Part shown: in pieces, positions 1-62,751 of the stretch | Numbering within the stretch: position 1 is the first letter of the stretch | Layout of the letters: each line of letters starts with the position of its first letter | NCBI RefSeq assembly: GCF_937910895.1 | Contig: NZ_CALEMI010000067.1 | Location: forward strand, 1-64,000 | Direction: 5' to 3' | Origin: an uncultured Dokdonia sp. | GTDB taxonomy: Bacteria > Bacteroidota > Bacteroidia > Flavobacteriales > Flavobacteriaceae | DNA: 64,000 nt | Translations under genes and position numbers: made by a program | The notes under the pieces: generated by a model | Database searches by the model: none | Seen by the model: only the letters and a program-made list of their open reading frames with translations | Told to the model about the DNA's origin: nothing

Positions 1-343
1 ACCACAAGAAGTTTCTGCCATCGCTTCTCCTCGCCCAAAGCTAACACTTTGTCGTTTCCAAGGCTTCAAAAATTTTTAACGGAAATCCAGCGCTCCATCT
101 CGCCCAGAATTCACATTCTGTCGTATACTGGAAAAAAAGAAGAAAAACTTATATCGAACTCACGTTAATCTAAAAAATATTCAATTCAAAGACGGGATAT
201 CTAAGATATGTATATACGCTTTCGCGAAAGCGCACACAGATATACACCCTTATATATCTTACAAAGTCTCTTGTTATTGATATCTAAATGTATAAGAATG
301 GAAAAACTATTCCTTGTGAAAGACCACAATAGCAAAGAAAAAC
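1..343. repeat. Gene-free repeat-rich segment at window start
   Basis: No convincing gene lies here. Two hairpins share the left flank CTCGCC and right flank TCG but have different stems: CAAAG/CTTTG (36-40, 47-51) and CAGAAT/ATTCTG (105-110, 115-120). They are followed at 124-168 by a near copy of 62895-62939, which ends in the 19-nt terminus TTATATCGAACTCACGTTA (149-167). A perfect GCTTTCGCGAAAGC palindrome is at 218-231. The short open frame running through that palindrome from 208 has no homologous look and overlaps the end of the response-regulator gene, so I do not call it. Confidence 0.6.
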
Positions 344-1015
344 CTACTCTTGGATCATCCCTAGCTTATTGGCTATGTATATTAATTGTGGAAGTGTAGT
401 CGCATTAAAATGATCTTTGAGCCTACTGATACGATCTTCTACAGAGCGAACACTATCTGGTAAGATCTTTTTTTCTTTTAGATAGACTGCGATGTCTTTT
501 TGCTTTTTACCGTCTGCTAATAATCGCAATACGATCAATTCATAGTCACCAATTTCCAACACATTGCGTTGCTCTAAGGCTCCTTTAGCTACAGGGCAGT
601 AATAAGAGTTTCCTTCAAAAACAGTGGTAACGGCAGCACCTAATTCTTTAAGTCCTTGCAATCCTTTACAGACATATCCGTCGATTTGAAACATTTCTGA
701 AAGGGACTTAATCACAAAGTGTTTATCATTTGATGAAAATACAATCACTTTAATACTTGGCTGAAGCAATCGTATGCTACGTATCAATTCTTGACCTGTC
801 ACTATTTTATTTTTTCCAAAAGCAGGCGTAAAGGATAGATCGGTAATTAGAAGCTCGTACGGTTGTTGTTCGTGAATTCCCTTTCGGATGCGCAATAGCG
901 CGTCATCACAAAATTGCACTTGATCTACGGTAGGAATTCCTAAATCTTTAAGACTTGTAACCATGCTGTTTTTGTCACTATCATGATCTTCTGCTATTAG
1001 TATTTTGGTGTACAT
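344..1015 (-). CDS. Response regulator, receiver plus LuxR-like HTH output
   Basis: A 223-aa two-component response regulator. An N-terminal receiver domain (about 1-130) has acidic residues E9/D10, the phosphoacceptor D59 in the segment LLITDLSF, and a conserved lysine in YVCKG. The C-terminal part (about 150-215) is a helix-turn-helix of the NarL/LuxR kind, beginning near DYELIVLRLLADG. It lies 13 bp downstream of the TPR histidine kinase at 1029-2885 and reads in the same direction, so the two almost certainly form one operon and signalling pair. The target genes and signal cannot be read from the sequence. LuxR-type DNA binding is inferred from fold and position, since the HTH is diverged. 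Confidence 0.85.
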   Translation of the reverse strand: MYTKILIAEDHDSDKNSMVTSLKDLGIPTVDQVQFCDDALLRIRKGIHEQQPYELLITDLSFTPAFGKNKIVTGQELIRSIRLLQPSIKVIVFSSNDKHFVIKSLSEMFQIDGYVCKGLQGLKELGAAVTTVFEGNSYYCPVAKGALEQRNVLEIGDYELIVLRLLADGKKQKDIAVYLKEKKILPDSVRSVEDRISRLKDHFNATTLPQLIYIANKLGMIQE

Positions 1016-1028
1016 AACTACTATTTAA

Positions 1029-2885: not shown

Positions 2886-2929
2886 TCCTCTAAATTAGAA
2901 ATTATAAAACTAAACTACTAGCTATCAAA

Positions 2930-3091: not shown

Positions 3092-3119
3092 CTTTTAAAA
3101 ATTTTTCGGATTAAAAAAA

Positions 3120-3345: not shown

Positions 3346-3461
3346 AAAATGAGCTAATTATTGACACAAGCATGCCATCTTATTGATATCTGTTTGTTAC
3401 GTTTTGACATCTTTTGACACTTATATAAATAAATGACTATCAATAAATTAAAATAAATAAC

Positions 3462-4133: not shown

Positions 4134-4159
4134 AAAATATACGCTTTCGCGAAAGCAGA

Positions 4160-7100
4160 TTAATTCAACTTATAATGCACGGCATTTTCCTCTAATGCAT
4201 TTAATAATTCTTGAGAGATTTTTACTTTTTGTTTTTTACTAGGCATTCGCACATACAATTTCTCTTTAGGTTCAAAGACTTGAAAATGTAATTTATCATC
4301 TCCTTTATGCTCATCAAGAATTGTTTTTATTTCTTGAACACGTGCTTCGGCAATCTCGTTAATGTCTATATTGATCGTTAACTTTTTTGCATAGACATCC
4401 ATCACATCTTGCAATTGCTGAATACTATTAAATTGCGTCCGCGGATCACTTCTTCTGCCAGTTTCTCTATTGACAAATCCTTCTCGTATAAATACTTTTG
4501 CATGAATAAAACTATTTGGAATCAAGAAATGACGTAGTTTTAAATACTCTTCGCCAAACATTCTAAACTCAAAAGAATCTGTAAAATCCTCTACGTGAAA
4601 AGCTGCCCATCCTTTTCCATTTTTGGAGACACGGTGTTGCACATCTGTAATGACCCCACCAAAAGTGAGTTCGCGATTTACATACGCTTCCATCGTATTA
4701 AAATGAGTTACGGTCGCATTACAAAAGGTTTGCATTTCTGTTTTAAAATCATCGAGTGGATGTCCTGAAATATAAACACCAACGACTTCTTTTTCTCTAC
4801 GTAGTTTTTCCATGGTTCCCCATTCTTCACAAGGTGGAACTATAGGTTCTGGAATTTGCACTTCGCTGGATTCACCAAATAAACTTACTTGCGCACTATT
4901 TTCATTTTCTTGAAAACGCGCTCCATATTTTACAGCCTTTTCTAAAAAGGTGATTCCGTCGCCTTCATCGTGAAAAAACTGCGCGCGATGGGAATCTCCT
5001 AGTTCATCAAAACCACCTGCAAGAGCTAAACTTTCAAAGGCTTTTTTATTTGCCGCACGTAAATCAACACGACGTGCAAAATCAAACACCGATTTGTATT
5101 TACTTTCTTGTCTATTTTCTACGATCGTAGCTACAGCACCTGTTCCTACGCCTTTCACAGCGCCCATTCCAAAACGAATCGCCCCATTGTCATTTACTGT
5201 AAACTTTCTAAAAGATTCGTTGACATCAGGTCCTAATACTTCTAGCCCCATCCTTTTACATTCTTCCATGAAGAACGTGACTTGCTTGATATCATTCATG
5301 TTATTAGAAAGTACCGCTGCTAAATATTCAGCGGGGTAATGGGCTTTCAAATAGGCGGTTTGATATGCAATCCATGCATAACAGGTAGAGTGTGATTTAT
5401 TAAAAGCATAAGCGGCAAAAGCTTCCCAATCCTTCCAAATCTTTTCTAGCTTTTCAGGATCGTGTCCTTTGGCGGAAGCCTGTTCAATAAATTTAGGCTT
5501 CATTTTATCCAACACGGCAATCTGCTTTTTACCCATCGCCTTACGAAGGACATCGGCTTCACCTTTGGTAAAATCGGCTAACTTTTGAGAGAGTAACATC
5601 ACTTGCTCTTGATACACAGTAATTCCATACGTTTCCTTCAAATATTCTTCCATCGCAGGAAGATCATATTCAATCTCTTCTTCACCGTGCTTACGACGAA
5701 CAAACGACGGAATATATTCCATCGGTCCTGGACGATATAACGCATTCATTGCAATTAAATCTTCAAAAACCGTAGGTTTTAAAGACTGCATGTGTTTTTG
5801 CATTCCGGGAGATTCATACTGGAAGATTCCTACCGTATCTCCTCTTTGGAATAATTCGTATGTTTTCTCATCATCTAGCGGAAAGTTTTCTGGATCCAGA
5901 TCTACGTCATGGCGATACTTGACGAGCTTTACCGTATCCTTAATCAGCGTTAAGGTTTTAAGTCCTAAGAAATCCATCTTAAGTAGTCCTGCTTCTTCCA
6001 CCACCGAGTTATCAAACTGTGTCACATACAGATCTGAATCTTTTGCGGTGGCTACAGGGACAAACTTGGTAATATCATCAGGCGTGATAATCACGCCACA
6101 GGCATGAATCCCTGTATTACGCAGAGAGCCTTCCAATTCCTTAGCTTTGCGCAACATTCGTCCTTCCAGATCATCGCCTTCTGAAAGGCTAATCAGTTCT
6201 TGGACTTTGACAAGATCATCGGCTCTAAACTTTCCTTTTAATTCCTGATCGCTTTTTCCAATAATCTTATTCAGCTTAGACATCGTAGGAATCAGCTTTG
6301 CAATCCGATCGGCATCCCCTAGTGGCAAATCCAGTGCTCTTGAGGTATCTCGTATCGATGACTTTGCCGCCATCGTACCATACGTAATAATTTGTGCTAC
6401 TTGGTTGGCGCCATATTTATCAATCACATATTGCATCACACGACCACGTCCTTCATCATCAAAATCAATATCGATATCGGGCATACTCACACGATCCGGA
6501 TTTAAGAATCTCTCAAAAAGCAGATCGTACTTGAGCGGATCAATATTGGTAATCCATAAGCAATAGGCGACCACACTTCCCGCTGCCGATCCTCGTCCTG
6601 GACCTACAGACACGTCCATATTCCGCGCTTCGCGTATAAAGTCTTCTACAATCAAGAAATACCCTGGATATCCTGTTTTTTCGATAACATCAAGCTCAAA
6701 ATCCAGACGCTCTGTTACTTCATCAGAAAGCTCTTCTCCATATCGTTTTTTAGCACCTTGATAGGTGAGGTGTCTCAAAAATTTATTTTCTCCTCGTTTT
6801 CCTCCGTCTATTTTATCTTCTTCAAAAATGAACTCTTGAGGAATATCAAAGGCAGGTAGGAGTACATCACGTGCAAGTTCATACGATTCTACTTTATCAA
6901 TGACTTCCTGCACGTTTATAATGGCTTCTGGAAGATCCTTAAAAAGCGCTTTCATCTCATCGCCGCTTTTAAAGTAGTATTCGTTATTTGGTAAACCATA
7001 CCGATATCCGCGACCGCGACCTATAGGTGTTGCCACTTTTTCTCCATCTTTTACACATAATAGAATGTCGTGTGCTTCGGCATCTGCCTTGTCTACATAA

Positions 7101-8545
7101 AAGGTATTATTGGTTGCGATACATTTAATGGTATGCTTTCGCGAAAGCGTAACCAACACTGGCATCACTCTATCTTCATCATCCTGCCCATGTCGCATAA
7201 GCTCGATATATAAATCGTCACCAAATTGTTCTTTCCACCAAAGCAGCGCTTCTTCTGCTTGCTTTTCTCCCACATTTAAAATCTTACTAGGGACTTCTCC
7301 ATAGAGATTTCCTGTGAGTACAATAATATCATCTTTATATTGCTCAATGACTTTTCTATCAATACGTGGGATGTAATAAAAACCATCTGTATAGGCAATG
7401 GACGCCATTTTTGCCAGATTGTGATAACCATTTTTGTTTTTGGCGAGCATCACAATTTGATAGCCATTGTCTTTCTGACTTTTATTGGTGTGATCTACGC
7501 ATACATTAAATTCACAACCAACAATAGGTTTGATCGTTTTTGCTTCTGGCTCATTCCCTTCTGCGATGGCTGCTTCATTTTTAGCATTTACCGCTCTATT
7601 ATAATTCTTGACAGCTTTCACAAAGTGAAAAGCCCCCATCATATTTCCTGTATCGGTCATCGCAACCGCAGGCATATCATATTTGGACGCCGCATCTACA
7701 AGGTTTTGAATGTTGGTTGTAGACTGTAAAATAGAAAACTGTGTATGATTGTGAAGATGTGCAAAGGCGACTTCTGCCATTTGCGCTTCATTATCTTCTA
7801 TAACTGTTTTTGAAATCTCAGGCACTTCCTCTTTTTCAAGTGACTCCCGAATTTTTTTAGACGCTTTTTTTAGATTGATATGTTTGAGTCCTATAAATTG
7901 TATAGGCTGCGGATTATTTTCTGAGAATTTTTCGAAATAGTCTGGTTGTACGTCGAGTTCTTCTTTGGTAAAGACTCTTTGCCTAATCAATTCAAAGAAG
8001 CAGCGTGTTGTCGCTTCTACATCGGCAGTTGCATTATGTGCTTCTCCAAAACCTACTCCAAATAAATGTTTGTGAAGCTCTGTAAGGGTAGGCAATTTAA
8101 ACTTCCCTCCTCTACCGCCAGGAATCTGACATAATTTTGCGGTAACTTCTGTACAGGTATCTAGTACAGGCAACTCTTGAAGATCGTTAGGAAGGGATTG
8201 CCTATGAAACTCGGCTCCCATAATATTGAGATCAAAGCCTACATTTTGACCTACAACAAATTTTGTTTTTGATAGCGCAATATTAAATTTTTCTAGCACT
8301 TCTTGTAATGAGAGACCATCACGTATGGCCAGTTCTGTAGAAATCCCATGGATACGTTCTGCGTCATACGGAATATCAAATCCTTGTGGTTTGATCAAAT
8401 AATCCTGATGCTCTATCACATTTCCCATCGCATCGTGTAACTGCCAAGCGATTTGTATCGCGCGAGGCCAGTTGTCTGAGTCTGTTATTGGGGCATTCCA
8501 GTTTTTAGGTAATCCTGTGGTTTCGGTATCAAAAATAAGGTACAT
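4160..8545 (-). CDS. dnaE: DNA polymerase III alpha subunit with N-terminal proofreading exonuclease
   Basis: A 1461-aa replicative polymerase subunit. Residues 1-190 are a DEDDh 3'-5' exonuclease: D6/E8 in FDTETTG, D105 in NVGFDL, and H170 and D175 in HNATADVE. The PHP domain begins near 262 with HLHNHTQFS, and the polymerase palm carries MPDIDIDFDD at 688-697. Helix-hairpin-helix and OB-fold regions follow. Exonuclease at the N-terminus, rather than inside PHP as in PolC, fits the Bacteroidota arrangement and explains the length compared with about 1160 aa in E. coli. A perfect GCTTTCGCGAAAGC repeat is embedded in the frame at 7135-7148, encoding TLSRK near residue 466. The gene appears monocistronic. 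Confidence 0.97.
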   Translation of the reverse strand: MYLIFDTETTGLPKNWNAPITDSDNWPRAIQIAWQLHDAMGNVIEHQDYLIKPQGFDIPYDAERIHGISTELAIRDGLSLQEVLEKFNIALSKTKFVVGQNVGFDLNIMGAEFHRQSLPNDLQELPVLDTCTEVTAKLCQIPGGRGGKFKLPTLTELHKHLFGVGFGEAHNATADVEATTRCFFELIRQRVFTKEELDVQPDYFEKFSENNPQPIQFIGLKHINLKKASKKIRESLEKEEVPEISKTVIEDNEAQMAEVAFAHLHNHTQFSILQSTTNIQNLVDAASKYDMPAVAMTDTGNMMGAFHFVKAVKNYNRAVNAKNEAAIAEGNEPEAKTIKPIVGCEFNVCVDHTNKSQKDNGYQIVMLAKNKNGYHNLAKMASIAYTDGFYYIPRIDRKVIEQYKDDIIVLTGNLYGEVPSKILNVGEKQAEEALLWWKEQFGDDLYIELMRHGQDDEDRVMPVLVTLSRKHTIKCIATNNTFYVDKADAEAHDILLCVKDGEKVATPIGRGRGYRYGLPNNEYYFKSGDEMKALFKDLPEAIINVQEVIDKVESYELARDVLLPAFDIPQEFIFEEDKIDGGKRGENKFLRHLTYQGAKKRYGEELSDEVTERLDFELDVIEKTGYPGYFLIVEDFIREARNMDVSVGPGRGSAAGSVVAYCLWITNIDPLKYDLLFERFLNPDRVSMPDIDIDFDDEGRGRVMQYVIDKYGANQVAQIITYGTMAAKSSIRDTSRALDLPLGDADRIAKLIPTMSKLNKIIGKSDQELKGKFRADDLVKVQELISLSEGDDLEGRMLRKAKELEGSLRNTGIHACGVIITPDDITKFVPVATAKDSDLYVTQFDNSVVEEAGLLKMDFLGLKTLTLIKDTVKLVKYRHDVDLDPENFPLDDEKTYELFQRGDTVGIFQYESPGMQKHMQSLKPTVFEDLIAMNALYRPGPMEYIPSFVRRKHGEEEIEYDLPAMEEYLKETYGITVYQEQVMLLSQKLADFTKGEADVLRKAMGKKQIAVLDKMKPKFIEQASAKGHDPEKLEKIWKDWEAFAAYAFNKSHSTCYAWIAYQTAYLKAHYPAEYLAAVLSNNMNDIKQVTFFMEECKRMGLEVLGPDVNESFRKFTVNDNGAIRFGMGAVKGVGTGAVATIVENRQESKYKSVFDFARRVDLRAANKKAFESLALAGGFDELGDSHRAQFFHDEGDGITFLEKAVKYGARFQENENSAQVSLFGESSEVQIPEPIVPPCEEWGTMEKLRREKEVVGVYISGHPLDDFKTEMQTFCNATVTHFNTMEAYVNRELTFGGVITDVQHRVSKNGKGWAAFHVEDFTDSFEFRMFGEEYLKLRHFLIPNSFIHAKVFIREGFVNRETGRRSDPRTQFNSIQQLQDVMDVYAKKLTINIDINEIAEARVQEIKTILDEHKGDDKLHFQVFEPKEKLYVRMPSKKQKVKISQELLNALEENAVHYKLN

Positions 8546-8664: not shown

Positions 8665-8687
8665 GTTATTTTTTTTAGTATTGTAAA

Positions 8688-10710: not shown

Positions 10711-11499
10711 ATGTCACAAGCTCCATTTCAATTCAAACAATTTACCATTGCTCAAGACCGTTGTGCTGCCAAAATAGGCACAGACGGGGTCTTATTAGGC
10801 GCATGGTCTTCTATTGCTCATGACCCTTCTTCTATCTTAGATGTTGGAACAGGGACAGGCATTATAGCGTTGATGCTTGCCCAACGAAGTGATGCCGAAA
10901 CCATAGATGCGCTAGAACTAGATGATGATGCCTACGAACAGGCTACGGAAAATTTTGAAAATAGCAATTGGGGCGATCGGCTGTTTTGTTATCACGCACA
11001 TTTGTACGAGTTTGCTACCGAAATAGAAGATACGTATGATCTTATTATCTCTAATCCGCCGTTTTATGAAGCTTCCTCTCTCCCTCCTGAATCTCTTAAA
11101 AGCGAAGAGAACAGCATGTCTGATGCCAGGAAACTAGCACGATTTGAAGATGCGATGCCTTTTGAATTACTCATAGGGGCTGTTGCCAAATTACTTTCAG
11201 ACACAGGCAGATTTAACGTGATCATTCCGCATCATAGAGAAGAAGATTTTATTGCTTTGGCTTCCAGCGCTCATCTATTTCCAACCCGCATTACGCATGT
11301 AAAAGGAACTCCTGAGAGCCCTATCAAAAGAAGCCTATTAGAATTTGCCCGTTTATCTCAACTCGAACAGACTATAGAAGGAGATGTGATACGCTTTCGC
11401 GAAAGCGTACTCCCCCAAGAACTTAGTATCGAATACGGGAGGCATGAATACACCAATGGGTATATTGCGTTAGTCAAAGATTTTTACTTAAAAATGTAA
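10711..11499 (+). CDS. trmN: tRNA1(Val) A37 N6-methyltransferase (TrmN6/YfiC family)
   Basis: A 262-aa SAM-dependent methyltransferase. The SAM site reads ILDVGTGTGIIALMLAQR (about 43-60), and the adenine N6 catalytic motif NPPF is in LIISNPPFYEA (about 115-120). The N-terminal FKQFTIAQDRCAAKIGTDGVLLGAW is typical of the YfiC family, which methylates A37 of tRNA-Val. It begins 11 bp after rimM and closes the translation operon. A perfect palindromic repeat (11393-11406) is read in frame as RFRES near the C-terminus. Confidence 0.9.
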   Translation: MSQAPFQFKQFTIAQDRCAAKIGTDGVLLGAWSSIAHDPSSILDVGTGTGIIALMLAQRSDAETIDALELDDDAYEQATENFENSNWGDRLFCYHAHLYEFATEIEDTYDLIISNPPFYEASSLPPESLKSEENSMSDARKLARFEDAMPFELLIGAVAKLLSDTGRFNVIIPHHREEDFIALASSAHLFPTRITHVKGTPESPIKRSLLEFARLSQLEQTIEGDVIRFRESVLPQELSIEYGRHEYTNGYIALVKDFYLKM

Positions 11500-13810: not shown

Positions 13811-14692
13811 CTACGATTTGAAAAGTTCTAAAGTCTCACCTTCATTTTTTTCGGTAATGGTAACCAATAGTTTTTTGACTCCTATTTTATTTACTTTGTA
13901 CACTTTGGTTCCTATAGTCCATCGTTCTTTTTTGACAGTGCCTGGCATCATTGGGAAACCGTAGCCAAAGTAGCTTCCGTCTTGTTTAGGGCCTTTAACG
14001 ACAAAGTGATTACGATTCCAAGAATTATTTTTGATTTTAATGTCTATGTATTTTGCTTTCGCGAAAGCGGTCTTTGCCTCCTCACTTATAGTATTGGTTT
14101 CTCCTATTACCTTTTCGGGTTGCTGTACAAATTCCAAACGTGCATTTTTATCAAGGGTACTTTCTACAAGTTCTGTGGCATTTACTATCGCTTTTCCATG
14201 ACCCCAAATATTCACGTTGGCTTGTTTCACCTCAAGTTTTGAAGCATTCACCGTTCCATTTTCTGCACCTATCCCTACTTTGTTGGCTTTCCCAAAAGCT
14301 ACGATCTCCCCGTTAAGCGCCATAAGCGAGATCGCTTCCCGATCTACATTTTTAAGCAACACCGTTTCATTAACGCCGACTTGTAGTCTTGTAAGACTCG
14401 GAGCCCCAATGGTGATTTTAATTCGCTGTGAGGGTTGTATCCACTCTAGTTGTGCTAGTTTGAGGATGCCATCGACCACCTCAGTATCTATAAGTTCTTG
14501 GAGATTACTATCTGTGGTAATGATCATTTCTGCTGTTGCATTTTGATCGATGACTACCTGTGCATAAAGTCCCATCTCAATAGCTGTTAAGCCTTGCATA
14601 TCTATGGTTCTTGTGGTGATATTCTTGTTTCCTTTTACTTGTGCTACACCTGTCATTCCAACAAGAAGTAGTATAAACGTTAATTTTTTCAT
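13811..14692 (-). CDS. GIN-domain (DUF2807-like) secreted protein
   Basis: A 293-aa exported protein with signal peptide (1-17, ending GVAQ). The bulk is a beta-helical GIN domain of the head-GIN/auto-transporter-adhesin-like type: repeating short strands such as ITIGAPSLTRLQVGVNETVLL, MALNGEIVAFGKANKVGIG and VNIWGHGKAIVNA. Function in this widespread Bacteroidota family is not established. A perfect palindromic repeat (14055-14068) is read as AFAKA near residue 210. The gene lies downstream of, and in line with, the AraC regulator at 14827-16017, and the gap between them carries three regularly spaced TGAGAC words, so direct regulation is plausible. Confidence 0.8.
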   Translation of the reverse strand: MKKLTFILLLVGMTGVAQVKGNKNITTRTIDMQGLTAIEMGLYAQVVIDQNATAEMIITTDSNLQELIDTEVVDGILKLAQLEWIQPSQRIKITIGAPSLTRLQVGVNETVLLKNVDREAISLMALNGEIVAFGKANKVGIGAENGTVNASKLEVKQANVNIWGHGKAIVNATELVESTLDKNARLEFVQQPEKVIGETNTISEEAKTAFAKAKYIDIKIKNNSWNRNHFVVKGPKQDGSYFGYGFPMMPGTVKKERWTIGTKVYKVNKIGVKKLLVTITEKNEGETLELFKS

Positions 14693-14826: not shown

Positions 14827-16017
14827 TTATAAAGAGTTGACAAACTCTGTAGGAGAGGTATGTGCTATCTTTTTAAACACTCTATTAAAGGTAGCTTTGC
14901 TATTAAAACCGCAGTCATAGGCGATTCCTAGTAGAGATAGTTGCTCTTGTTTTCCTTCTTGCAACATTTGCTTTACAGCTTCAACACGATAGGAATTCAC
15001 AAAATCATTAAAGTTTTTACCAAAGCCTTCATTGATGACTTCAGATACTTGGGAACGGGACATTTTTAGCTTTCGCGAAAGCGTATTTAAATTCAAATCA
15101 GGATCCAGATAGGGTTTTTCTAACTCAAAATAATCACTCACCATTTGCCTGCTCGCTTGTAATTCTTCCGAAAGCGGAAGCTCTCTTTTTATCCCCTCCG
15201 AATGAAACGGAGAAGCTATTGTGATATTAAAATCTAAACCCTTGAGTTTATCAGTATCGGTCATATAGCCTTTGATACCTATATAAATAATAGCGAGTGC
15301 GTTTAAAAATTGCAACCACCATTTTTGCATCCAACTTAATTCTGTGATGGAAATATCTACCATAGTTTGACCAATATCATAGATAAATAAAGCGGTGTAA
15401 ATCAATAAAAAATTACGAATCCAATTAAGTTCTAACGTATACGTATTTGAAAAATACTGTTGGATATTTTTGCGATAGGCTACATATAACTGCAATGTCA
15501 AAACGAGATATACAATCATCTGAATGTATGAAACCATAGAGTGAAAAGGCGCTACATATTTCCATTCAAAATTCTGAACGAGGTATCCATTTTGAGTTTC
15601 TGAAAATCCAAGTTGGCTGGCGTCATACGCTAAAATAATCACCTTTAATAAGAAATAAACAATGCCAGGAATAAAGTGCCAAATGTGTTGCTTCTTAAAA
15701 CGAAAATCTGATACGGTAATACTTTTTACATAAAAGTAGATCAGTGGCACTAAAATCAACTCTAAGTTAATAAGGTAATAGTTAATCTTTGTATTTCTAT
15801 AGGTATCATACCAATCCATAAACCCTATGGTATAGGTAGTACGATGGTAACATGTAATGAGAAGGATACAGGCTAAAATAAGATAGGAGATGCTTTTTTT
15901 CTTACGGTATTTTCCAAAAAGAAGAAAGGCAAAAATAAGTCCTTGTAATACCAACACAAGCAATGGTGTACTGTATACATTAAAACTAGGAAATTCTATA
16001 AGGAGGTTGATCAACAC
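14827..16017 (-). CDS. Membrane-anchored AraC-family transcriptional regulator
   Basis: A 396-aa protein. About seven hydrophobic helices (residues 15-265, e.g. TPLLVLVLQGLIFAFLLF and FIPGIVYFLLKVIILAY) form a membrane sensor. The C-terminal 110 residues are an AraC DNA-binding domain with two helix-turn-helices (LNTLSRKLKMSRSQVSEVIN and LSLLGIAYDCGFNSKATFNR, then FKKIAHTSPTEF). This multi-TM plus AraC layout is frequent in Flavobacteriia. A perfect palindromic repeat (15069-15082) lies in the frame as TLSRK, inside the first HTH. The likely target is the GIN gene just downstream. The membrane signal is unknown. Confidence 0.88.
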   Translation of the reverse strand: MLINLLIEFPSFNVYSTPLLVLVLQGLIFAFLLFGKYRKKKSISYLILACILLITCYHRTTYTIGFMDWYDTYRNTKINYYLINLELILVPLIYFYVKSITVSDFRFKKQHIWHFIPGIVYFLLKVIILAYDASQLGFSETQNGYLVQNFEWKYVAPFHSMVSYIQMIVYLVLTLQLYVAYRKNIQQYFSNTYTLELNWIRNFLLIYTALFIYDIGQTMVDISITELSWMQKWWLQFLNALAIIYIGIKGYMTDTDKLKGLDFNITIASPFHSEGIKRELPLSEELQASRQMVSDYFELEKPYLDPDLNLNTLSRKLKMSRSQVSEVINEGFGKNFNDFVNSYRVEAVKQMLQEGKQEQLSLLGIAYDCGFNSKATFNRVFKKIAHTSPTEFVNSL

Positions 16018-20485: not shown

Positions 20486-20555
20486 TGATTCTTGTTAAGT
20501 ACGCTTTCGCGAAAGCGGATGTACACATACATTTATTACAAAGATGATATCTAAT

Positions 20556-23138: not shown

Positions 23139-23813
23139 CTATTTAACTCTAAATTTAATATAAGTTATCGGTTTTCCTTGCTCAAGATATTGTTTTTCAT
23201 AAAATGTTTGTATTCCCACTACTTCTTTTGGCGAATATTCATTCTTATAGACATGATGATTTGCGTGTAAAATCTCATGCCCTTCCCCATGCAGAAGTCC
23301 TAAGGTATATCCATGCATAAATTCAGAATCTGTCTTTAAATGAATGACGCCTTCTGGTTCTAAAATCTGCTTATATTTTTGCAAGAATTCTGTATTTGTC
23401 ATTCTATGCTTAGTGCGTTTATACTTGATTTGAGGATCAGGAAAGGTGATCCAGATTTCGGCTATTTCTGCTTTCGCGAAAGCGTAATCAACAAGCTCTA
23501 TCTGTGTACGCATAAAGCCTACATTGATCAAATTTTCTTCTAGTGCGGTCTTGGCACCTCTCCAAAAACGGGCTCCTTTAATATCGATCCCTAGAAAATT
23601 TTTATCTGGATATGTTCTTGCCAATCCTACAGAATATTCTCCTTTACCACATCCTAATTCTAAAATAATAGGTTTATTATTTTTGAAAAAATCAGTTTTC
23701 CACTTACCTTTCAAAGGAAAACTTCCATCAACCAATTCTTCACGAGTTGGTTGAATGACGTTACTGAAGGTTTCGTTTTCACGAAAACGCTTTAATTTAT
23801 TTTTACTTCCCAA
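23139..23813 (-). CDS. trmB: tRNA (guanine-N7-)-methyltransferase
   Basis: A 224-aa SAM-dependent enzyme that makes m7G46 in tRNA. Motifs: ILELGCGKGEYSVGLA for SAM, NFLGIDIKGARFWRGA, IWITFPDPQIKYKRTKHR (the family's FPDPWPKKRH-like site), and LKTDSEFMHGY. I start it at TTG 23813, which gives GSKNKLKRF, the usual family beginning. A longer frame to 23900 would run into the divergent glycosyltransferase. A perfect palindromic repeat (23470-23483) is read as AFAKA just before the conserved FPDP motif. Confidence 0.93.
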   Translation of the reverse strand: MGSKNKLKRFRENETFSNVIQPTREELVDGSFPLKGKWKTDFFKNNKPIILELGCGKGEYSVGLARTYPDKNFLGIDIKGARFWRGAKTALEENLINVGFMRTQIELVDYAFAKAEIAEIWITFPDPQIKYKRTKHRMTNTEFLQKYKQILEPEGVIHLKTDSEFMHGYTLGLLHGEGHEILHANHHVYKNEYSPKEVVGIQTFYEKQYLEQGKPITYIKFRVK

Positions 23814-23882
23814 ACTACTATTTAATGTTTTGGTAAAATTAAGGAAACTTTCAATAGTTATAAGTATCTGAAATTTGCATTT

Positions 23883-26644: not shown

Positions 26645-26808
26645 GAGTGTACCAAGGTTTCATTCTATAAATATAGTCTATTATAAATTCTTTAATAAAC
26701 GACTAAAATAATTTATTCCGTTGGTTACCTAAGCAGTATCTATATTAAGAATGGGTTAAATATTTACGCTTTCGCGAAAGCATAAACAACTCTGTCTATT
26801 ACATTTTG

Positions 26809-33328: not shown

Positions 33329-34330
33329 ATGATTTTAGTCACAGGAGGAACAGGTCTCGTCGGAATGCATTTATTACTTGAACTTACACGGGATCATACG
33401 CCCGTGCGATCGACATTCAGAACTACTGAAAAAATAAAAGAGGTGGAGGCTTTTTTTGCTTTCGCGAAAGCGGAAAACCAGTTTAAAAAAATAGATTGGA
33501 TACAAGCCGATATCATAGACGTTCCTTTACTAGAGCTTGCTTTTAAGGACATCATACACGTATATCACTGTGCCGCACTGATCTCATTTGATCCTTATGA
33601 CTTTCAAAAATTATTAAAAACAAATGTCGAAGGCACCGCAAACGTAGTCAATCTATGTCTGTCATATCAAGTGCAAAAACTATGTTATGTAAGCTCTGTT
33701 GCTGCGTTAAGCAAACTACCCAACAACCCTATTACCGAAGAAAACATCTGGGATCCCAATGAATCAAATTCGGTCTATGCCATTTCAAAATATGGTGCCG
33801 AAATGGAAGTCTGGCGGGGTACACAAGAAGGATTGGACGCTATCATTTTTAATCCAGTAATTATTCTAGGAGAAGGAGATTATACGAAAGGAAGTGGTGA
33901 ATTATGCAATCACGTATTGAAAGAAAAAGCATTCTACCCAAAAGGAAGTAATGGATTTATAGACGTGAAAGATGTTGTTACCCTTATGATACAAGGACTT
34001 TCTAGTAACTTAACAAATGAGCGTTATATTCTGGTGGGAGAAAACACATCTTATAAAGACATCTTGCAACGTATGGCAACGCAATTTTCTAAAAAGCCTC
34101 CCAAAAAATCACTCCCAAGCGGATTTCTTACGCTACTTGCTGTAGCAGATGGATTTTTGGGATTGTTTACTCGTAAGAGAAACATGACTCGTGCTAGTGC
34201 TAAAGCGATGCAGGAAGTTAAAAGATTTAGTTCTGAAAAGGCAAAACAACAATTATATTATGTTCCTACACCTATAGATGAAACCTTAAAAAGAATAAAG
34301 CTACATCTGGAAGCTACAAAGAATCTATAA
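33329..34330 (+). CDS. NAD-dependent epimerase/dehydratase (extended SDR)
   Basis: A 333-aa Rossmann enzyme. The cofactor loop is ILVTGGTGLVGMHLL (2-16), the catalytic S/Y-K set is YVSSVAALSK and YAISKYG, and HCAALIS is the usual NNAG-equivalent. The substrate is unknown; the family includes sugar-nucleotide epimerases and dihydroflavonol-reductase-like enzymes, and the sequence leans to the latter. A perfect palindromic repeat (33458-33471) is in frame as FAFAKAEN near residue 46. The 3' end overlaps the convergent DUF4296 gene by 17 bp. Confidence 0.88.
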   Translation: MILVTGGTGLVGMHLLLELTRDHTPVRSTFRTTEKIKEVEAFFAFAKAENQFKKIDWIQADIIDVPLLELAFKDIIHVYHCAALISFDPYDFQKLLKTNVEGTANVVNLCLSYQVQKLCYVSSVAALSKLPNNPITEENIWDPNESNSVYAISKYGAEMEVWRGTQEGLDAIIFNPVIILGEGDYTKGSGELCNHVLKEKAFYPKGSNGFIDVKDVVTLMIQGLSSNLTNERYILVGENTSYKDILQRMATQFSKKPPKKSLPSGFLTLLAVADGFLGLFTRKRNMTRASAKAMQEVKRFSSEKAKQQLYYVPTPIDETLKRIKLHLEATKNL

Positions 34331-38489: not shown

Positions 38490-38541
38490 ATACGCTTTCG
38501 CGAAAGCAGTATAATAATTTAACTTTTGTTAATTTCATTCC

Positions 38542-43640: not shown

Positions 43641-43682
43641 ACATTTTCGCGAAAGCGCACCTAAAATGACCTAAGATATTTC

Positions 43683-52771: not shown

Positions 52772-54103
52772 TCAATTGACATCAAGCCCTTTCAGTTTCT
52801 GAAATATACGCAGAGATTTACTATCTGTCATCACAGATATATAATTACATACTTTCATTAACTCTTGATATAATGTTAATTCCTCCTGACTATCATCTTC
52901 AAATAATTTAAGGACAAGATTATCATAATGCGTTGGGGAATTCGTAATCACTTTACAACGCTTATCAAGTAAGGTAGAAAGAATTTCGTACCCAGCTATC
53001 TCTTTTTCGACAACTTCCTTACTTTGGTAAATATTTGAAACACTAATCCTCAAAATATCCTCAATTTGAGCTTCGTATTTGGATTTGTCTAATAACGCTT
53101 TCGCGAAAGCGCCCTTTAAAATAGCTTCTTCATTTTCCATAAATATCGCAACCGCCTCCTGTATTAACGTCCCTATGGCGAGCGCTCGGAGATATCCCAC
53201 CCGAGCCGCTTTTGTGGTAAGTTCATGATACTTTTGGGTATTGATATTAGGCACCAGCTTGACCATATATTCTAGCGCATAGTCTTCTGAGATAAGTCCG
53301 AGATTAATCCCATCTTCAAAATCTATAATCGTGTAACAAATATCATCTGCCGCTTCTACCAAGAAAGTCAATGGGTGACGTGCATAACGCACATCTTTCC
53401 CAGTATTCGTCTGAAGCAGCCCTAACTCCTCTGCCACTTCTTGAAAAGCTTGTTTTTCACTTTGAAAAAAGCCAAATTTCTTATCGGCGATATGCTTTGT
53501 TGGCTTTACAGGCAACGATTCTTTTGGGTATTTCATAAAAGCCCCTAATGTAGCATAAGAAAGACGTAAGCCTCCAGTAGCACCAGGCTTAGATGCTGTG
53601 AGTATTTTAAATCCATTGGCATTTCCTTCAAAAGCACAAAGATCTTGATACTCTTTATCAGTAAGTTGTGAAGCAAATCGTTTGCCATTCCCATTTTTAA
53701 AGTAGTCCCCTATGGCTTTTTCTCCAGAGTGTCCAAAAGGAGGATTACCTATATCATGAGCAAGTGCTGCTGCAGCGACAATAGCTCCAAAATCATTAAA
53801 CTGATAGCCGTGTACTTCAGAAAGGTGTGGGTATTTTTCGAGAATTTGCTTCCCTACTTGTCTTCCTAATGACCTTCCCACCACAGCTACCTCTAAGCTA
53901 TGTGTAAGCCGTGTATGTACAAAATCTGTCTTAGATAAAGGGATGACTTGTGTTTTATCCTGAAGACTTCTAAAGGCCGACGAAAAAATAATACGATCGT
54001 AATCTACCTCAAATCCCAGTCGAGTTTCATCCTGCTCTTTACGTAATCGCTTATTAGTATCTCCTTGTTTTTTGAGAGATAATAGGCGTTCCCATTGCAT
54101 CAT
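52772..54103 (-). CDS. dgt: dGTPase-like deoxynucleoside triphosphate triphosphohydrolase
   Basis: A 443-aa HD-domain enzyme. Landmarks: RIIFSSAFRSLQDKTQVIPL, RLTHSLEVAVVGRSLG (H of HD), AALAHDIGNPPFGHSGE (the HD pair), and the later EAADDICYTIIDFEDGI. Family members release tripolyphosphate from dNTPs and help set nucleotide pools. A perfect palindromic repeat (53097-53110) is read as AFAKALLDKSK near residue 334. It is a single gene; no terminator is obvious downstream. Confidence 0.92.
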   Translation of the reverse strand: MMQWERLLSLKKQGDTNKRLRKEQDETRLGFEVDYDRIIFSSAFRSLQDKTQVIPLSKTDFVHTRLTHSLEVAVVGRSLGRQVGKQILEKYPHLSEVHGYQFNDFGAIVAAAALAHDIGNPPFGHSGEKAIGDYFKNGNGKRFASQLTDKEYQDLCAFEGNANGFKILTASKPGATGGLRLSYATLGAFMKYPKESLPVKPTKHIADKKFGFFQSEKQAFQEVAEELGLLQTNTGKDVRYARHPLTFLVEAADDICYTIIDFEDGINLGLISEDYALEYMVKLVPNINTQKYHELTTKAARVGYLRALAIGTLIQEAVAIFMENEEAILKGAFAKALLDKSKYEAQIEDILRISVSNIYQSKEVVEKEIAGYEILSTLLDKRCKVITNSPTHYDNLVLKLFEDDSQEELTLYQELMKVCNYISVMTDSKSLRIFQKLKGLDVN

Positions 54104-54191
54104 AGTATTCTAATTTTATAGTTGCAAGATACGTGTTGTTACGCTTTCGCGAAAGCGTACTTATGTGCATTCCTTTTTTATGAAACACAAA

Positions 54192-54324: not shown

Positions 54325-57150
54325 ATGAAACAATTTTTTCTTTTTACAATACTACTTTTTTCACTTGCAATGCAGGCACAAGGAAATGGCTCCATTGCAG
54401 GAACGTTAACAGATAAAGAAAGTGCTGATGGACAGCCTTTACCTTTTGCTAGTGTCATCATAAAAGGAACCACGCAAGGATCTACTTCAGATTTTGATGG
54501 TAATTTTATTATAGACAACGTAGTGCCAGGCACGTATACACTTACCATTTCTTTTGTAGGATATGAAACGTTAGAAGTTCCCAATGTAGTGGTTGAATCT
54601 AATAAAATAACAAAAGTAAATACAGGGCTTGGCGCAAGTGCAGCGGCTCTAGATGAGGTGATTATAACCACTACCGTTCGTAGAGAAAGTGAAGTTGCTT
54701 TACTTCTTGACCAACAAAAAGCTGTTGTTCAAAAACAAAGTATTGGTGCAGAAGAGCTGGCTAGAAAAGGAATTGATGATGCCGCTGGAGCTGTCACAAA
54801 AATTTCTGGAATCTCAAAACAAGAAGGCGGAGGTAATGTGTATGTGCGTGGTCTTGGAGATCGGTATCAAAACACAACCTATAATGGATTGCCATTACCT
54901 TCTAATGATATTGACAAAAAGAATATAGATTTAGGTCTATTTTCTTCAGATCTTATTCAGAACATTGGCGTAAGTAAAACATACGCATCCAACTTTTATG
55001 GAGACTTTGCAGCTGGTAACGTAGATATCGTTTCAAAGGAATACACAGGTAAGTTCTTTATAGAAAGTAGCTTAGGTACAGGTATTAATACCAATGCTCA
55101 AGGCGAAAATTTTGTAAGAAGTGAAGGCACTAGCTTTTTTGGATATTATAACAGGTATAATAACAACCCATTTGCAACCATTATTCAAAATGGATTTGAT
55201 CCTGTAGATGGTGGCACTCCTATTAATATTTCTGGAAAAATCACAGGTGGTAATTCTTGGGATATAGGAGAAGAGTCTCGTTTTAGTGTATTTGCAACTG
55301 CTGCTTTTAGTAATGGTTTTGAATATCGCCAAGGACAAGCTGCCAATTTTACTATTGTAGAAGATGTAGTCTTCCCAAATGCAGAAGAGTACGTATATAA
55401 TACGAACACTACGGCGCTATTAAATTTTACGTATAAAATAAACAGCGATCACAAATTAAAATTTAATTCTGTGTTCATTAATGATGCTACAGACGAAGTA
55501 GGCTATTTTGGAACAGAAGGACAAGGTCGTAACAGAGATGCTATCTTAGATACCGACGAAGGTTTTTATGTATCAAACATACAGTTTGATCAAGATATGA
55601 TTTTTGTAAATCAGGTATTAGGAACACATACTTTAGATGAAAATCTAAAACTTGACTGGGCGATAGGAGCAAATACGGTATTAGCACGTCAACCAGATCG
55701 TAGAAGAATTAGTGTAGAAGGGTTTGATAGAACGTTTGACGATGACCCAACTACAAATCCTATCTTCTTTAATAACATTCCTTTCGATAACCAACGGTAT
55801 TTCCAAGATATAGAAGACAAAGAAGTTAATGCCAGATTTAATTTAGAGTACACTTTAAATGAAAATGTAGTATTCAATATCGGGTATAACGGAAGAGTGA
55901 AAGAACGTAATTTTGAAAACATCCGTTATGGATACGATTTTATTGAACCTAACACTCCTGTCCTTGATGTAAATAACCTTGATGCTGTATTTACTCCTGA
56001 AAATCTTGGTGTTGTCTATGACACCTTTGTTTTCAATTCTTTAAATGATAATGAATTTGGAATCGGCAATAGAAACGTACCTGGTGATCCTGAAAACACC
56101 TATACCGGAAATCTTGATATTCACGCTGGAAATGTAGATGCAACACTCAAGCTAGGAGACAAATGGACATTTTCTCCAGGAATCCGTATTGAATCATACA
56201 ACCAAGATATTACCTATGATGTAATAAACTTACTCTCTACAGATCCTGGTTTTGCAAGTGCTAGTGAAACATTTATACTTCCAAGTTTAAACATTAAGTA
56301 TGCTTTAAAAGAAAATCAAAATTTACGTTTTTCTGCTAGTCGTACCGTATCAAATCCAGAATTTAAAGAAGTAGCTCCATTTGTATATGAAGATGTTACT
56401 AATCAAACAGGAGGTAACCCTGATATATTAGGAAACAATCCATTCTCAAATATTTACAATGTTGATTTAAAATACGAATGGTTTTTTGCAAAAGGAGAGA
56501 TTTTTTCTGTTGCCGCTTTCGCGAAACAAATTAATGATCCTGTCAATCTTGTAGTGGCAAACGATGCTACAGGAACACAACGTTTTGTGCGCTCTGGAGA
56601 CCAAGCAGAAGTACTAGGATTAGAAGTAGAATTACGTAAATCTCTTCTTAAAAACGAGGAGGAAGATGCCATTCTTTCTTTTGGATTAAACGCCACCTAT
56701 ATCTACACACAGCAAGATTTGAGAAATTCAGAAGGGTTTATCAATACCACTTTTGATAGAGATACTGATGAGTTACAAGGAGCCTCTCCTTTCTTAATTA
56801 ATGCAGATGTAAGCTATAGTCCAGTATTTACCAAATATGAAAACTACAAACCAACAGCTAACCTTGTATTTTCTTATTTCTCAGATCGTATAGACGCATT
56901 AGGCTCTGGACAACTAGGGAATATTATAGAAACTGGAATCCCAACACTAGACCTTGTATGGAAAAATAGCTTTGGTAAACATATTGAACTTAATGCCAGC
57001 GCAAAAAACATATTAAACCCTACGATCGAGTTCTTCAGAGAAGGAACAAGTTTAGGAGATATTCCTGTAAGTGCTGCAAATGGGAGTAGTAGTATCGCAC
57101 AATACAAGCGAGGAGTAAATCTAAGCTTACAATTCAAATATAAATTTTAA
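54325..57150 (+). CDS. TonB-dependent outer-membrane receptor with carboxypeptidase-regulatory-like domain
   Basis: A 941-aa receptor. The signal peptide (1-18, ending MQAQ) is followed by a CarboxypepD_reg-like beta domain (GSIAGTLTDKESADGQPLPFASV to SFVGYETLEV, about 20-100). The plug follows (VRRESEVALLLDQQKAVVQKQSIGAEELARKG... NVYVRGLGDRYQNTTYNGLPL, about 115-250) and then a 22-strand-type barrel ending in ...LSLQFKYKF. It imports a ligand too large for porins using TonB energy. No SusD partner is present; instead a beta-helix lipoprotein follows 45 bp downstream. Pho-like repeats upstream and the nearby PiT gene suggest a phosphate-containing ligand. A truncated palindromic repeat (56514-56526) is in the barrel. 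Confidence 0.93.
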   Translation: MKQFFLFTILLFSLAMQAQGNGSIAGTLTDKESADGQPLPFASVIIKGTTQGSTSDFDGNFIIDNVVPGTYTLTISFVGYETLEVPNVVVESNKITKVNTGLGASAAALDEVIITTTVRRESEVALLLDQQKAVVQKQSIGAEELARKGIDDAAGAVTKISGISKQEGGGNVYVRGLGDRYQNTTYNGLPLPSNDIDKKNIDLGLFSSDLIQNIGVSKTYASNFYGDFAAGNVDIVSKEYTGKFFIESSLGTGINTNAQGENFVRSEGTSFFGYYNRYNNNPFATIIQNGFDPVDGGTPINISGKITGGNSWDIGEESRFSVFATAAFSNGFEYRQGQAANFTIVEDVVFPNAEEYVYNTNTTALLNFTYKINSDHKLKFNSVFINDATDEVGYFGTEGQGRNRDAILDTDEGFYVSNIQFDQDMIFVNQVLGTHTLDENLKLDWAIGANTVLARQPDRRRISVEGFDRTFDDDPTTNPIFFNNIPFDNQRYFQDIEDKEVNARFNLEYTLNENVVFNIGYNGRVKERNFENIRYGYDFIEPNTPVLDVNNLDAVFTPENLGVVYDTFVFNSLNDNEFGIGNRNVPGDPENTYTGNLDIHAGNVDATLKLGDKWTFSPGIRIESYNQDITYDVINLLSTDPGFASASETFILPSLNIKYALKENQNLRFSASRTVSNPEFKEVAPFVYEDVTNQTGGNPDILGNNPFSNIYNVDLKYEWFFAKGEIFSVAAFAKQINDPVNLVVANDATGTQRFVRSGDQAEVLGLEVELRKSLLKNEEEDAILSFGLNATYIYTQQDLRNSEGFINTTFDRDTDELQGASPFLINADVSYSPVFTKYENYKPTANLVFSYFSDRIDALGSGQLGNIIETGIPTLDLVWKNSFGKHIELNASAKNILNPTIEFFREGTSLGDIPVSAANGSSSIAQYKRGVNLSLQFKYKF

Positions 57151-58446: not shown

Positions 58447-58496
58447 TGTTTTATATACACTTACGTGAAAGCGTACTGTGCCTTATAAAAAGAAAA

Positions 58497-61450: not shown

Positions 61451-61475
61451 AATACGTACTCGTATGTAATAACTT

Positions 61476-61511
61476 AGACCTGATAGAGTATTTCTTTATC
61501 AGGTCTTTTTT
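61476..61511 (+). terminator. Rho-independent terminator
   Basis: AGACCTGATA and TATCAGGTCT with an 11-nt loop and six T, 26 bp after the PiT gene. Confidence 0.9.
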
Positions 61512-61523
61512 ATACTTAAAATT

Positions 61524-62675
61524 ATGGATACGCTTTCGCGAAAATCAATACCGCCAGCCTCTACAAAAACACTTAAAGAAGTAGCTCTTGTCTTTTTTAA
61601 GCTAGGTTGTTTTGCCTTTGGCGGACCTGCAGCTCACATTGCTATGATGGAAGATGAAATCATTACCAAACGCAAATGGATGTCTAGAGAACACTTTTTA
61701 GATCTCATAGGCGCTACCAATCTTATTCCTGGTCCCAACTCTACAGAAATGACGATGCATTGTGGTCATGAACGCGCAGGAAGCAAAGGCCTCTTTGTTG
61801 CTGGAATTGCTTTTATCATACCCGCTGTCGTCATTACGGCACTACTCGCCTATCTCTATGTTTCCTACGGGCAACTTCCTGAAGTCGCTCCTTTTCTATT
61901 TGGGATCAAACCTGCTGTACTCGCTATTATAGCATCAGCCGTATTAAAGTTAGGAAAGAAAGCCATCAAAACAACAGAGCTTATCATCATAGGGATACTC
62001 GTCTTAATGACAGCCTTGTTAGGTGTACATGAAGTCGTTGCATTGCTTGGTGCTGGGATTATTGGGACTTTATACTTTTATCTAAAATCAAAAGTAACCA
62101 CCTCAAAAGCAATCATTCCATTACCGATATTGATTTCTACACTATTGATGAAGACACCCGTACTTCAAGTTTTTTGGACATTTCTTAAAGTAGGCGCTAT
62201 TCTTTATGGCAGTGGCTATGTGCTTTTTGCCTACCTAGATGCCGAACTTGTCTCCAAAGGATGGCTCACAAGAACCGAACTTATAGATGCTATTGCTGTA
62301 GGACAGTTTACCCCAGGTCCTGTACTCTCTACCGCTACTTTTATAGGATACCAACTTTCTGGTTTTGGAGGCGCACTCGCTGCCACCACAGGGATTTTCC
62401 TTCCCTCTTTCCTATTTGTGCTTATCTTAAATCCATTTGTACCTAAGATGCGTTCTTCTAAAATTTTGAGCTACTTCCTAGACACCGTAAATGTTGCCGC
62501 TGTAGCGGTAATGCTTTCCGTACTGATCACGATGAGTATAGATACCCTTACGGATTGGCGTGCGATTCTTATTGTAGGCATCAGTGCATTTTTCATATTT
62601 AGCAAATGGAAAATTAGTGTCATGTGGCTGATTGCAGGAGGGGCTATTCTTGGATATCTATTACAACTTCTTTAA
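61524..62675 (+). CDS. chrA: ChrA-family chromate transporter, two-domain form
   Basis: A 383-aa membrane protein with two homologous halves. The first has FFKLGCFAFGGPAAHIAMME (about 25-45) and LIPGPNSTEM; the second has FLKVGAILYGSGYVLFAYLDAE and GQFTPGPVLSTATFIGYQLSG. These repeated FGGP/PGP motifs define the long-chain CHR family, known for chromate efflux, though many members may move other anions. The N-terminal codons after ATG 61524 fall in a degenerate copy of the interspersed palindrome (61531-61544), giving MDTLSRKS. It sits just after the PiT terminator. Confidence 0.9.
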   Translation: MDTLSRKSIPPASTKTLKEVALVFFKLGCFAFGGPAAHIAMMEDEIITKRKWMSREHFLDLIGATNLIPGPNSTEMTMHCGHERAGSKGLFVAGIAFIIPAVVITALLAYLYVSYGQLPEVAPFLFGIKPAVLAIIASAVLKLGKKAIKTTELIIIGILVLMTALLGVHEVVALLGAGIIGTLYFYLKSKVTTSKAIIPLPILISTLLMKTPVLQVFWTFLKVGAILYGSGYVLFAYLDAELVSKGWLTRTELIDAIAVGQFTPGPVLSTATFIGYQLSGFGGALAATTGIFLPSFLFVLILNPFVPKMRSSKILSYFLDTVNVAAVAVMLSVLITMSIDTLTDWRAILIVGISAFFIFSKWKISVMWLIAGGAILGYLLQLL

Positions 62676-62751
62676 AGCAACTAATCATTCTTTATACGCT
62701 TTCGCGAAAGCGTGTAACTTATCGCCTGTATCCCATAAGAAAGGTATTAAA

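What the first reader, a model, noticed from the sequence alone, without database searches (positions are those of the whole stretch)
218..62711. A 14-20 bp perfect palindrome (TACGCTTTCGCGAAAGCGTA core) scattered through the whole window
I counted 15 exact copies of GCTTTCGCGAAAGC (starts 218, 4143, 7135, 11393, 14055, 15069, 20503, 23470, 26768, 33458, 38494, 49514, 53097, 54143, 62698) and six degenerate ones (22094, 43644, 56514, 58459, 61531, 63185). A given 14-mer is expected far less than once in 64 kb. Copies are single, not in pairs, and lie on average every 3-4 kb, in gaps and in genes. Seven of the 15 exact copies fall in the roughly 10 percent of the window that is intergenic. This distribution resembles DNA-uptake words, or sites for a chromosome-organising protein (Noc, SlmA and ParB also use 14-16 bp palindromes), rather than transposition. 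I do not recall a described function.
Basis: partly seen in the sequence, partly recalled or inferred. Interest (0 to 1): 0.85.

Follow-up and report, generated by a model that had tools for sequence, protein, structure and literature searches.

The report
Evenly spaced palindromic genome word, Dokdonia
Marine bacteria related to Dokdonia carry the same 14-letter palindrome hundreds of times, spaced unusually evenly along the chromosome and protected by selection inside genes, so some unidentified protein probably reads it as a genome-wide mark.

Summary
GCTTTCGCGAAAGC occurs 15 times in the window (0 expected) and 878 times in the genome. All 18 genomes of the genus examined, and four sampled genomes of two other genera, hold hundreds; the other 391 family genomes sampled hold 0-19. 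The conserved site is wider than the 14-mer: C/G at the first flanking base, a TA(C) step and C-poor, G/T-rich arms reaching about 20 bp on both sides and varying independently, as for a double-stranded site bound by a symmetric dimer. In genes it is kept at DNA level: 92% codon identity inside words against 53% beside them. Words repel each other: 4 of 114 gaps under 1 kb in one genome (33 expected), 0 of 31 in three further groups (5.8 expected). A mobile element and phage-like contigs carry it too. Tests gave no support for a pilus-type uptake word (platform gene missing in 8 of 13 word-rich genomes), a Noc-like ParB paralogue, RAYT transposase or RecBCD. Hairpin and terminator readings fit poorly; an insertion origin of intergenic copies could not be judged. 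Best reading: anchor site of an unknown dimeric chromosome-organising or self-marking protein. That protein was not found.

The parts
218..231 (.). exact word, intergenic
4143..4156 (.). exact word, between two convergent stop codons
7135..7148 (.). exact word inside dnaE (gene 4160-8545, -), peptide LSRK; exact in 16 of 18 other genomes compared
11393..11406 (.). exact word (full 20-mer) inside gene 10711-11499 (+), peptide FRES; exact in 8 of 11 relatives compared
14055..14068 (.). exact word inside gene 13811-14692 (-), peptide AFAKA; in 0 of 3 relatives compared
15069..15082 (.). exact word inside gene 14827-16017 (-); in 3 of 3 relatives compared
20503..20516 (.). exact word, intergenic
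23470..23483 (.). exact word inside gene 23139-23900 (-), AFAKA; in 4 of 4 relatives compared
26768..26781 (.). exact word, intergenic between divergent genes
33458..33471 (.). exact word inside gene 33329-34330 (+), AFAKA; in 4 of 4 relatives compared
38494..38507 (.). exact word, intergenic, downstream of a stop codon
49514..49527 (.). exact word (full 20-mer) inside dxs-like gene 47906-49663 (+), AFAKA; in 4 of 5 relatives compared
53097..53110 (.). exact word inside gene 52772-54103 (-), AFAKA; in 3 of 5 relatives compared
54143..54156 (.). exact word (full 20-mer), intergenic between divergent genes
62698..62711 (.). exact word, intergenic, 22 bp after a stop codon
22092..22105 (.). degenerate word with intact TTTCGCGAAA core (two mismatches)
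43643..43656 (.). degenerate word with intact core (two mismatches)
56515..56528 (.). degenerate word with intact core (two mismatches)
61532..61545 (.). degenerate word with intact core (two mismatches)

Best explanation
SHOWN: the word is the centre of a roughly 40-bp symmetric site, 5'-(C-poor, G/T-rich arm)-T-A-C-GCTTTCG|CGAAAGC-G-T-A-(G-poor arm)-3'. Copies in genes are kept by selection on the DNA itself, and copies repel each other below about 1.5 kb. INFERRED: an unidentified sequence-specific protein binds it as a dimer, one subunit per half-site. The site acts in cis on the surrounding few kilobases with a saturating effect, so one site per 3-5 kb is enough and a second one nearby gains nothing. 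I commit to an architectural, self-marking role: sites are regular anchor points of resident DNA (loop or nucleoid organisation), acquired in time by resident phages and mobile elements. The anatomy (dimer-type dsDNA site under selection) I hold at about 0.85; the specific anchoring role at the value given below.
For: Sharp motif: 140 exact, 15 one-mismatch copies in 520 kb of G001. Arms extend to about -21, alike in 89 intergenic and 91 genic copies, and the two arms vary independently: 1142 symmetric matches against 1164 expected in 224 sites. Codons inside words identical 177 of 193 against 1344 of 2542 beside them; the dnaE word is exact in 16 of 18 other genomes, from three genera. Spacing: 4 of 114 gaps under 1 kb against 33 expected with genic/intergenic class kept, 57 gaps of 2-4 kb against 28.6; G003, G207 and g11 stretches 0 of 31 against 5.8, P 0.001. 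No clear trend along the chromosome. A palindrome has no orientation, which fits an anchor better than a polar signal.
Against: No binding protein was identified. No nucleoid protein known to me uses about 900 exact 14-bp sites (recalled). Even spacing and intergenic bias are also reported for uptake words (PMC1939737, passages), and DUS under-representation in strain-specific insertions (PMC2397512, title of a supplementary file). Words on a mobile element are conserved between copies in word-poor hosts, which a host-only anchoring role does not predict unless the element brings its own factor or cycles through word-rich hosts; I did not search word-rich hosts for it. Spacing on the element is not significantly even (3 of 31 gaps under 1 kb against 6.4, P 0.07).
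Confidence: 0.4

Rival explanations
1. A DNA uptake (self-recognition) word for natural transformation, spread by uptake bias and read by a receptor that is not pilus-based in most of these species.
For: Density, excess of exact over one-mismatch copies, intergenic excess 70 against 18.7 in G001, even spacing, T-rich flanks, long word-free stretches over giant genes and a cassette-like region, ComEC family in 13 of 13 word-rich genomes. DUS spacing matches conversion-fragment length in Neisseria (PMC2397512, passages).
Against: T4P platform family PF00482 is absent from 8 of 13 word-rich genomes, five of which are single-contig assemblies (G001, G004, G005, G007, G207), and present in 2 of 17 word-poor ones. 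Known uptake words are stated not to be palindromes (PMC1939737, passage). ComEC is as common in word-poor genomes (16 of 17). Caveat: which machine flavobacteria use for uptake is not established in what I read (PMC7965970, section 14 and passages).
Confidence: 0.27
2. A bidirectional Chi-like or repair-control site: a nuclease, recombination or mismatch-repair machine stops or nicks at the word, so every few kilobases need one.
For: Cis-acting, saturating spacing; three distinct words on one phage-like contig with terminase and transposase matches; a mobile element whose stretches mostly lack CATG yet keep the words; G/T-rich arms.
Against: RecC family PF04257 found in 0 of 30 genomes (AddAB-type enzymes not tested). 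A 14-20 bp symmetric word is far longer than known Chi sites (recalled) and looks like a dsDNA dimer site.
Confidence: 0.15
3. A HIP1-like product of an orphan DNA methyltransferase and methylation-dependent repair, without a binding protein.
For: Palindromic, iterated, lineage-restricted like HIP1 (PMC4390886, passages); contains CGCG and TCGCGA.
Against: Conservation runs to about 20 bp beyond the word; TCGCGA outside words is near expectation, 47 against 39; repulsion at kilobase scale is not expected from a local mutation bias. Methylation and methyltransferases untested.
Confidence: 0.1
4. A mobile or REP-like palindrome, or an RNA hairpin such as a transcription terminator.
For: 38 of 77 intergenic copies with a stop side lie within 20 bp of a stop codon against 6.9 expected. 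The consensus folds as RNA (z -2.0 to -2.8 in three strings), as any palindrome would. In aligned pairs around dnaE that lack the exact word, gaps are far commoner than plain substitutions (243 against 12 of 711 pairs), so an insertion origin of intergenic copies is not excluded.
Against: RAYT family PF01797 missing from 9 of 13 word-rich genomes; half of the G001 copies lie in genes, and 10 of 11 genic relatives without the exact word align without a gap in it; arms do not covary and perfect extension by five or more bases is rarer than expected; 3' flank A-rich, not U-rich; no excess between convergent genes, 12 against 12.5.
Confidence: 0.05

Closest known systems
HIP1 (GCGATCGC), highly iterated palindrome of cyanobacteria
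   Same: Perfect palindrome, high copy number, limited to certain lineages, function unsettled (PMC4390886, passages)
   Different: 14-20 bp with conserved arms instead of 8-10 bp, even spacing near one per 3-5 kb, different sequence, no methyltransferase link shown, Bacteroidota
DNA uptake sequences (DUS/USS) of Neisseriaceae and Pasteurellaceae
   Same: Density, excess of exact copies, intergenic bias, T-rich flanks in USS (recalled), even spacing reported
   Different: Palindromic; T4P platform gene missing in 8 of 13 word-rich genomes tested
Noc, ParB, SlmA and MatP binding sites
   Same: Palindromes of similar length bound by dimers (recalled)
   Different: About 880 sites instead of tens, no clear origin/terminus trend, no extra ParB paralogue, TTTC-GAAA spacing is 2 bp instead of 4 in Noc and parS sites (recalled)
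18-nt over-represented palindrome of Caldithrix abyssi
   Same: Dispersed palindrome in another bacterial genome, probably downstream of genes (PMC5317091, passages)
   Different: 38 exact copies, no conservation outside the 18 nt, 13 of 38 overlap annotated genes judged probably misannotated; there related to REP sequences
Chi
   Same: About one site per few kilobases
   Different: Symmetric and much longer; RecC family absent

Membership tests
DNA uptake sequence (DUS/USS) | Large excess of exact copies over near-matches, genome-wide | tested here: met
   140 exact and 15 one-mismatch in 520 kb; 878 in the genome
DNA uptake sequence (DUS/USS) | Host has a type IV pilus-type uptake machine | tested here: not met
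   PF00482 in 5 of 13 word-rich genomes, absent in 8; one family only
DNA uptake sequence (DUS/USS) | ComEC channel | tested here: met
   13 of 13 word-rich, but also 16 of 17 others
DNA uptake sequence (DUS/USS) | Word raises DNA uptake | not testable with these tools
   needs transformation assays
HIP1-type iterated palindrome | Short perfect palindrome massively over-represented in genes and gaps | tested here: met
HIP1-type iterated palindrome | The sequence GCGATCGC | tested here: not met
   sequence differs
HIP1-type iterated palindrome | Accompanying methyltransferases that recognise its core | not tested
   methyltransferases were not searched for
Noc/ParB sites | An extra ParB-family paralogue in word-bearing genomes | tested here: not met
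   one PF02195 match in 11 of 13 word-rich genomes, two in G000 and G002; the second type (616-aa frame) is also in word-poor G118
SlmA/Noc/MatP-type sites | Origin- or terminus-biased distribution | tested here: inconclusive
   26 stretches of 20 kb, correlations -0.20 and 0.24 with two skew flips set by eye
REP/RAYT | RAYT transposase in the genome | tested here: not met
   PF01797 in 4 of 13 word-rich genomes and 8 of 17 others
Intrinsic terminator | Hairpin followed by a U-run | tested here: not met
   3' flank A-rich, no covariation of arms; the consensus can fold and copies cluster after stops
Chi with RecBCD | RecBCD present | tested here: not met
   PF04257 in 0 of 30; AddAB not tested

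The most novel reading that the evidence does not exclude
A new self-DNA marking system of Bacteroidota: a dimeric protein reads an evenly spaced symmetric word about every 3-5 kb on resident DNA, and mobile elements and phages that pass through these hosts carry and maintain the same mark, possibly together with its reader.
Probability: 0.35. Interest if true: 0.88.

Novelty: new variant of a known kind. Interest (0 to 1): 0.75.

Why it matters
Regular spacing of a long, selected, symmetric word is unusual, and whether the even spacing of uptake words means a role in DNA organisation has been argued both ways (PMC1939737, passages). A word clearly under selection in genomes without the pilus platform gene lets one test whether such words can serve DNA organisation or self-recognition rather than pilus-based transformation. 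It also predicts an undiscovered DNA-binding protein in marine bacteria that can be grown.

Tried and rejected
Rejected or disfavoured: hairpin or cruciform (independent arms, perfect extension by five or more bases per side 1 seen against about 8 expected), intrinsic terminator (A-rich 3' side, no convergent excess), RAYT, Noc-type ParB paralogue, RecBCD Chi, a link with CATG avoidance (strong in G001, G016, G014, weaker in other Dokdonia, near normal in g11 and G207). Transposition in genes (10 of 11 genic relatives without the exact word align without a gap).

Uninformative: alignment of sites around dnaE (711 pairs with flank identity 0.65 or more; 456 identical, 12 substituted without gap, 243 with gaps). 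Most of those I looked at (three genomes printed) are stretches that hardly align, so I draw nothing from the gaps, but they do not exclude an insertion origin of intergenic copies. Pfam on 30 element proteins, plus 10 from its islands, gave no clear word-reader; a winged-helix protein (L316:11194-12432) was not followed. JQ823122, a Nonlabens phage whose accession I recalled, has 0 words.

Literature, held open-access library only: the 14-mer is in 0 papers; TTTCGCGAAA in 10 papers that look unrelated by title (listing); Dokdonia, Krokinobacter and Nonlabens with 'palindrom' (listings only), uptake-sequence and palindrome searches. One search listed 20 of 4,668; its top paper (PMC5317091) I checked by passages: another palindrome.

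dnaE tree (30, then 29 genomes; 20 word-poor ones chosen from those; row G037 dropped as a long branch in the second): word-rich genomes as one clade are rejected (p-AU 0.004), but not once word-poor G161 is let in (p 0.284), so one origin with a loss is not excluded (one gene, LG+G4 without mixture).

Full report
OBSERVATION. All 15 exact copies are real and none is expected by chance. There is no one-mismatch copy in the window and there are five two-mismatch ones. Only 3 of 15 are the full 20-mer. The window's genome has 878 copies, with 0 for the reversed control. The window is from a Dokdonia relative: the two best named matches of one window protein are Dokdonia (84% identity), and G002 shares a contig length, 1,616,484, with Dokdonia pacifica DSM 25597 (inference).

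DISTRIBUTION. 18 of 18 genomes of the genus, the window's included, have 369-905 copies. In the 15 that are at least 88% complete (G006, G009 and G011 dropped) the number rises little with genome size (Spearman 0.40, p 0.14; counts, sizes rounded). In 397 genomes of the family 80 have at least one copy; hundreds occur in six of them, G000 and G003 (g1), G027, G258 and G410 (g11: 578, 664, 609) and G207 (g191: 408); the other 391 hold 0-19. Genera g11 and g191 could not be named. In stretches of other named flavobacteria (those of at least 12 kb among L007-L084) no dispersed 10-bp palindrome or 12-mer exceeded 3 and 4 copies; four loci reached those numbers.

ANATOMY. In 520 kb of the single-contig genome G001, exact copies outnumber one-mismatch copies 140 to 15. 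243 of its 899 copies are the full 20-mer. The profile of 165 sites from G001, G003 and g11, counted on both strands, shows C at -1 (89%), A at -2 (61%), T at -3 (77%), -4 (63%) and -7 (59%), and C depletion out to about -21. 89 intergenic and 91 genic copies agree. Left and right arms are independent in 224 distinct sites, and perfect extension by five or more bases per side is rarer than expected (1 against about 8). The consensus can fold as RNA, as any palindrome can. Together this points to a double-stranded dimer site rather than a hairpin.

GENE CONTEXT. With a home-made gene caller, 70 of 140 G001 copies are intergenic against 18.7 expected; window 7 of 15 (1.8), G003 5 of 14 (1.8), g11 7 of 12 (1.1), but G207 3 of 12 (3.0), so no excess there. 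Genic G001 copies prefer the AFAKA frame (43 of 70). Convergent gaps are not enriched (12 against 12.5) (all). Where a stop codon flanks the gap, 38 of 77 copies lie within 20 bp of it against 6.9 expected; where a start flanks it, 0 of 91 lie within 10 bp against 4.4; none of 401 gaps holds two words. I read this as placement where DNA change is tolerated, though a 3'-end role is not excluded.

SELECTION. For the eight genic window words, 42 of 53 listed comparisons with the best relative in the stretches fetched are exact; the dnaE word is exact in 16 of 18 other genomes. All 11 non-exact ones differ at two or more places. Inside words, codons for an unchanged amino acid are identical 177 of 193 times; beside them 1344 of 2542. 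Pairs share ancestry and are not independent.

SPACING. Under a null that keeps each stretch's genic and intergenic counts, G001 has 4 of 114 gaps below 1 kb (33 expected) and 57 between 2 and 4 kb (28.6 expected). An earlier plain null gave 6 of 128 against 34, and 3 of 98 against 26 outside the region first seen; the first 100 sites of G001 have a CV of 0.74, P 0.00085. Other word-rich genomes pooled give 2 of 126 against 25, but seven of them are the same syntenic region and not independent; stretches chosen without regard to synteny (G003, G207, g11) give 0 of 31 against 5.8, P 0.001. Sites act as if one per 3-5 kb suffices. Long word-free stretches in G001 cover two giant open frames and a cassette-like region of about 25 kb (not annotated).

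MOBILE DNA. In the word-poor genera that I looked into, copies often cluster on a mobile element with heavy-metal genes, with a serine recombinase and modification-type genes nearby, e.g. 16 words in 78 kb of G093 and 12 in 38 kb of G068. In 68 distinct element words the arm preferences are similar (T at -4 and -3, C at -1) with differences at -2 and -6. Between element copies whose flanking synonymous identity is 0.5-0.7, word codons are the same 520 of 545 times against 6914 of 12136 beside them; below 0.5, 323 of 389 against 4434 of 10577 (74 of 79 words used, pairs not independent). The element mostly lacks CATG and is often low in GATC, yet keeps this word. Stretches L329 and L319 have none, and spacing on the element is not significantly even (3 of 31 against 6.4, P 0.07). 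Word-rich genomes were not searched for it. A Nonlabens phage has none.

TESTS OF KNOWN SYSTEMS, 13 word-rich and 17 word-poor genomes. T4P platform family: 5 of 13 and 2 of 17. ComEC: 13 and 16. ParB: no special paralogue. RAYT: 4 and 8. RecC: 0 of 30. The dnaE tree does not place g11 with Dokdonia, but one origin with a loss is not excluded.

LITERATURE. Uptake words were called significantly evenly spaced by Karlin, as cited in PMC1939737, which itself argues they are not even enough for compaction (passages). DUS spacing matches conversion fragments (PMC2397512, passages); mean USS spacing is about 1 kb (PMC7811141, passages). HIP1 remains unexplained, with a methylation model (PMC4390886, passages). 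In flavobacteria, Riemerella columbina, R. anatipestifer and Flavobacterium johnsoniae were scanned for short k-mers (PMC7965970, passages and section 14). An 18-nt palindrome with 38 exact copies is known from Caldithrix (PMC5317091, passages).

VERDICT. A real, strongly selected, evenly spaced symmetric word for which my searches found no description. The site anatomy is well supported; the anchoring or self-marking role is the most likely of several open mechanisms.

Noticed in passing
L099-L104, L108-L127, L132, L155-L157 (G001); also L134 (G016), L139 (G014): CATG is almost absent in G001 (18 seen against 1813 expected in 600 kb), G016 (1 against 65) and G014 (0 against 59); other Dokdonia show weaker depletion and g11 and G207 little: a lineage-specific avoidance of a possible restriction site.
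   Followed up: partly
L293:4429-17721 and L294:1128-16283: Two giant neighbouring open frames (4431 and 5052 aa) without a single word, giving word-free gaps of about 17 kb each.
   Followed up: no
L295:4862-20000 and L296:1-10453: About 25 kb of small, mostly same-strand ORFs with wide gaps, like a cassette array, without words.
   Followed up: no
window 4160-8545 (-): dnaE-type polymerase of 1461 aa whose first 190 residues or so match DnaQ-type exonucleases: a fused polymerase and proofreading domain.
   Followed up: no
L312-L318, L322-L328: Mobile element shared by several flavobacterial genera with metal-efflux genes, a serine recombinase, a strawberry-notch-type helicase and methyltransferase-like genes, and strong CATG avoidance.
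   Followed up: partly
L095 (G207): A non-palindromic 12-mer (CACATAACGCTC) occurs five times in 20 kb, copies more than 300 bp apart.
   Followed up: no
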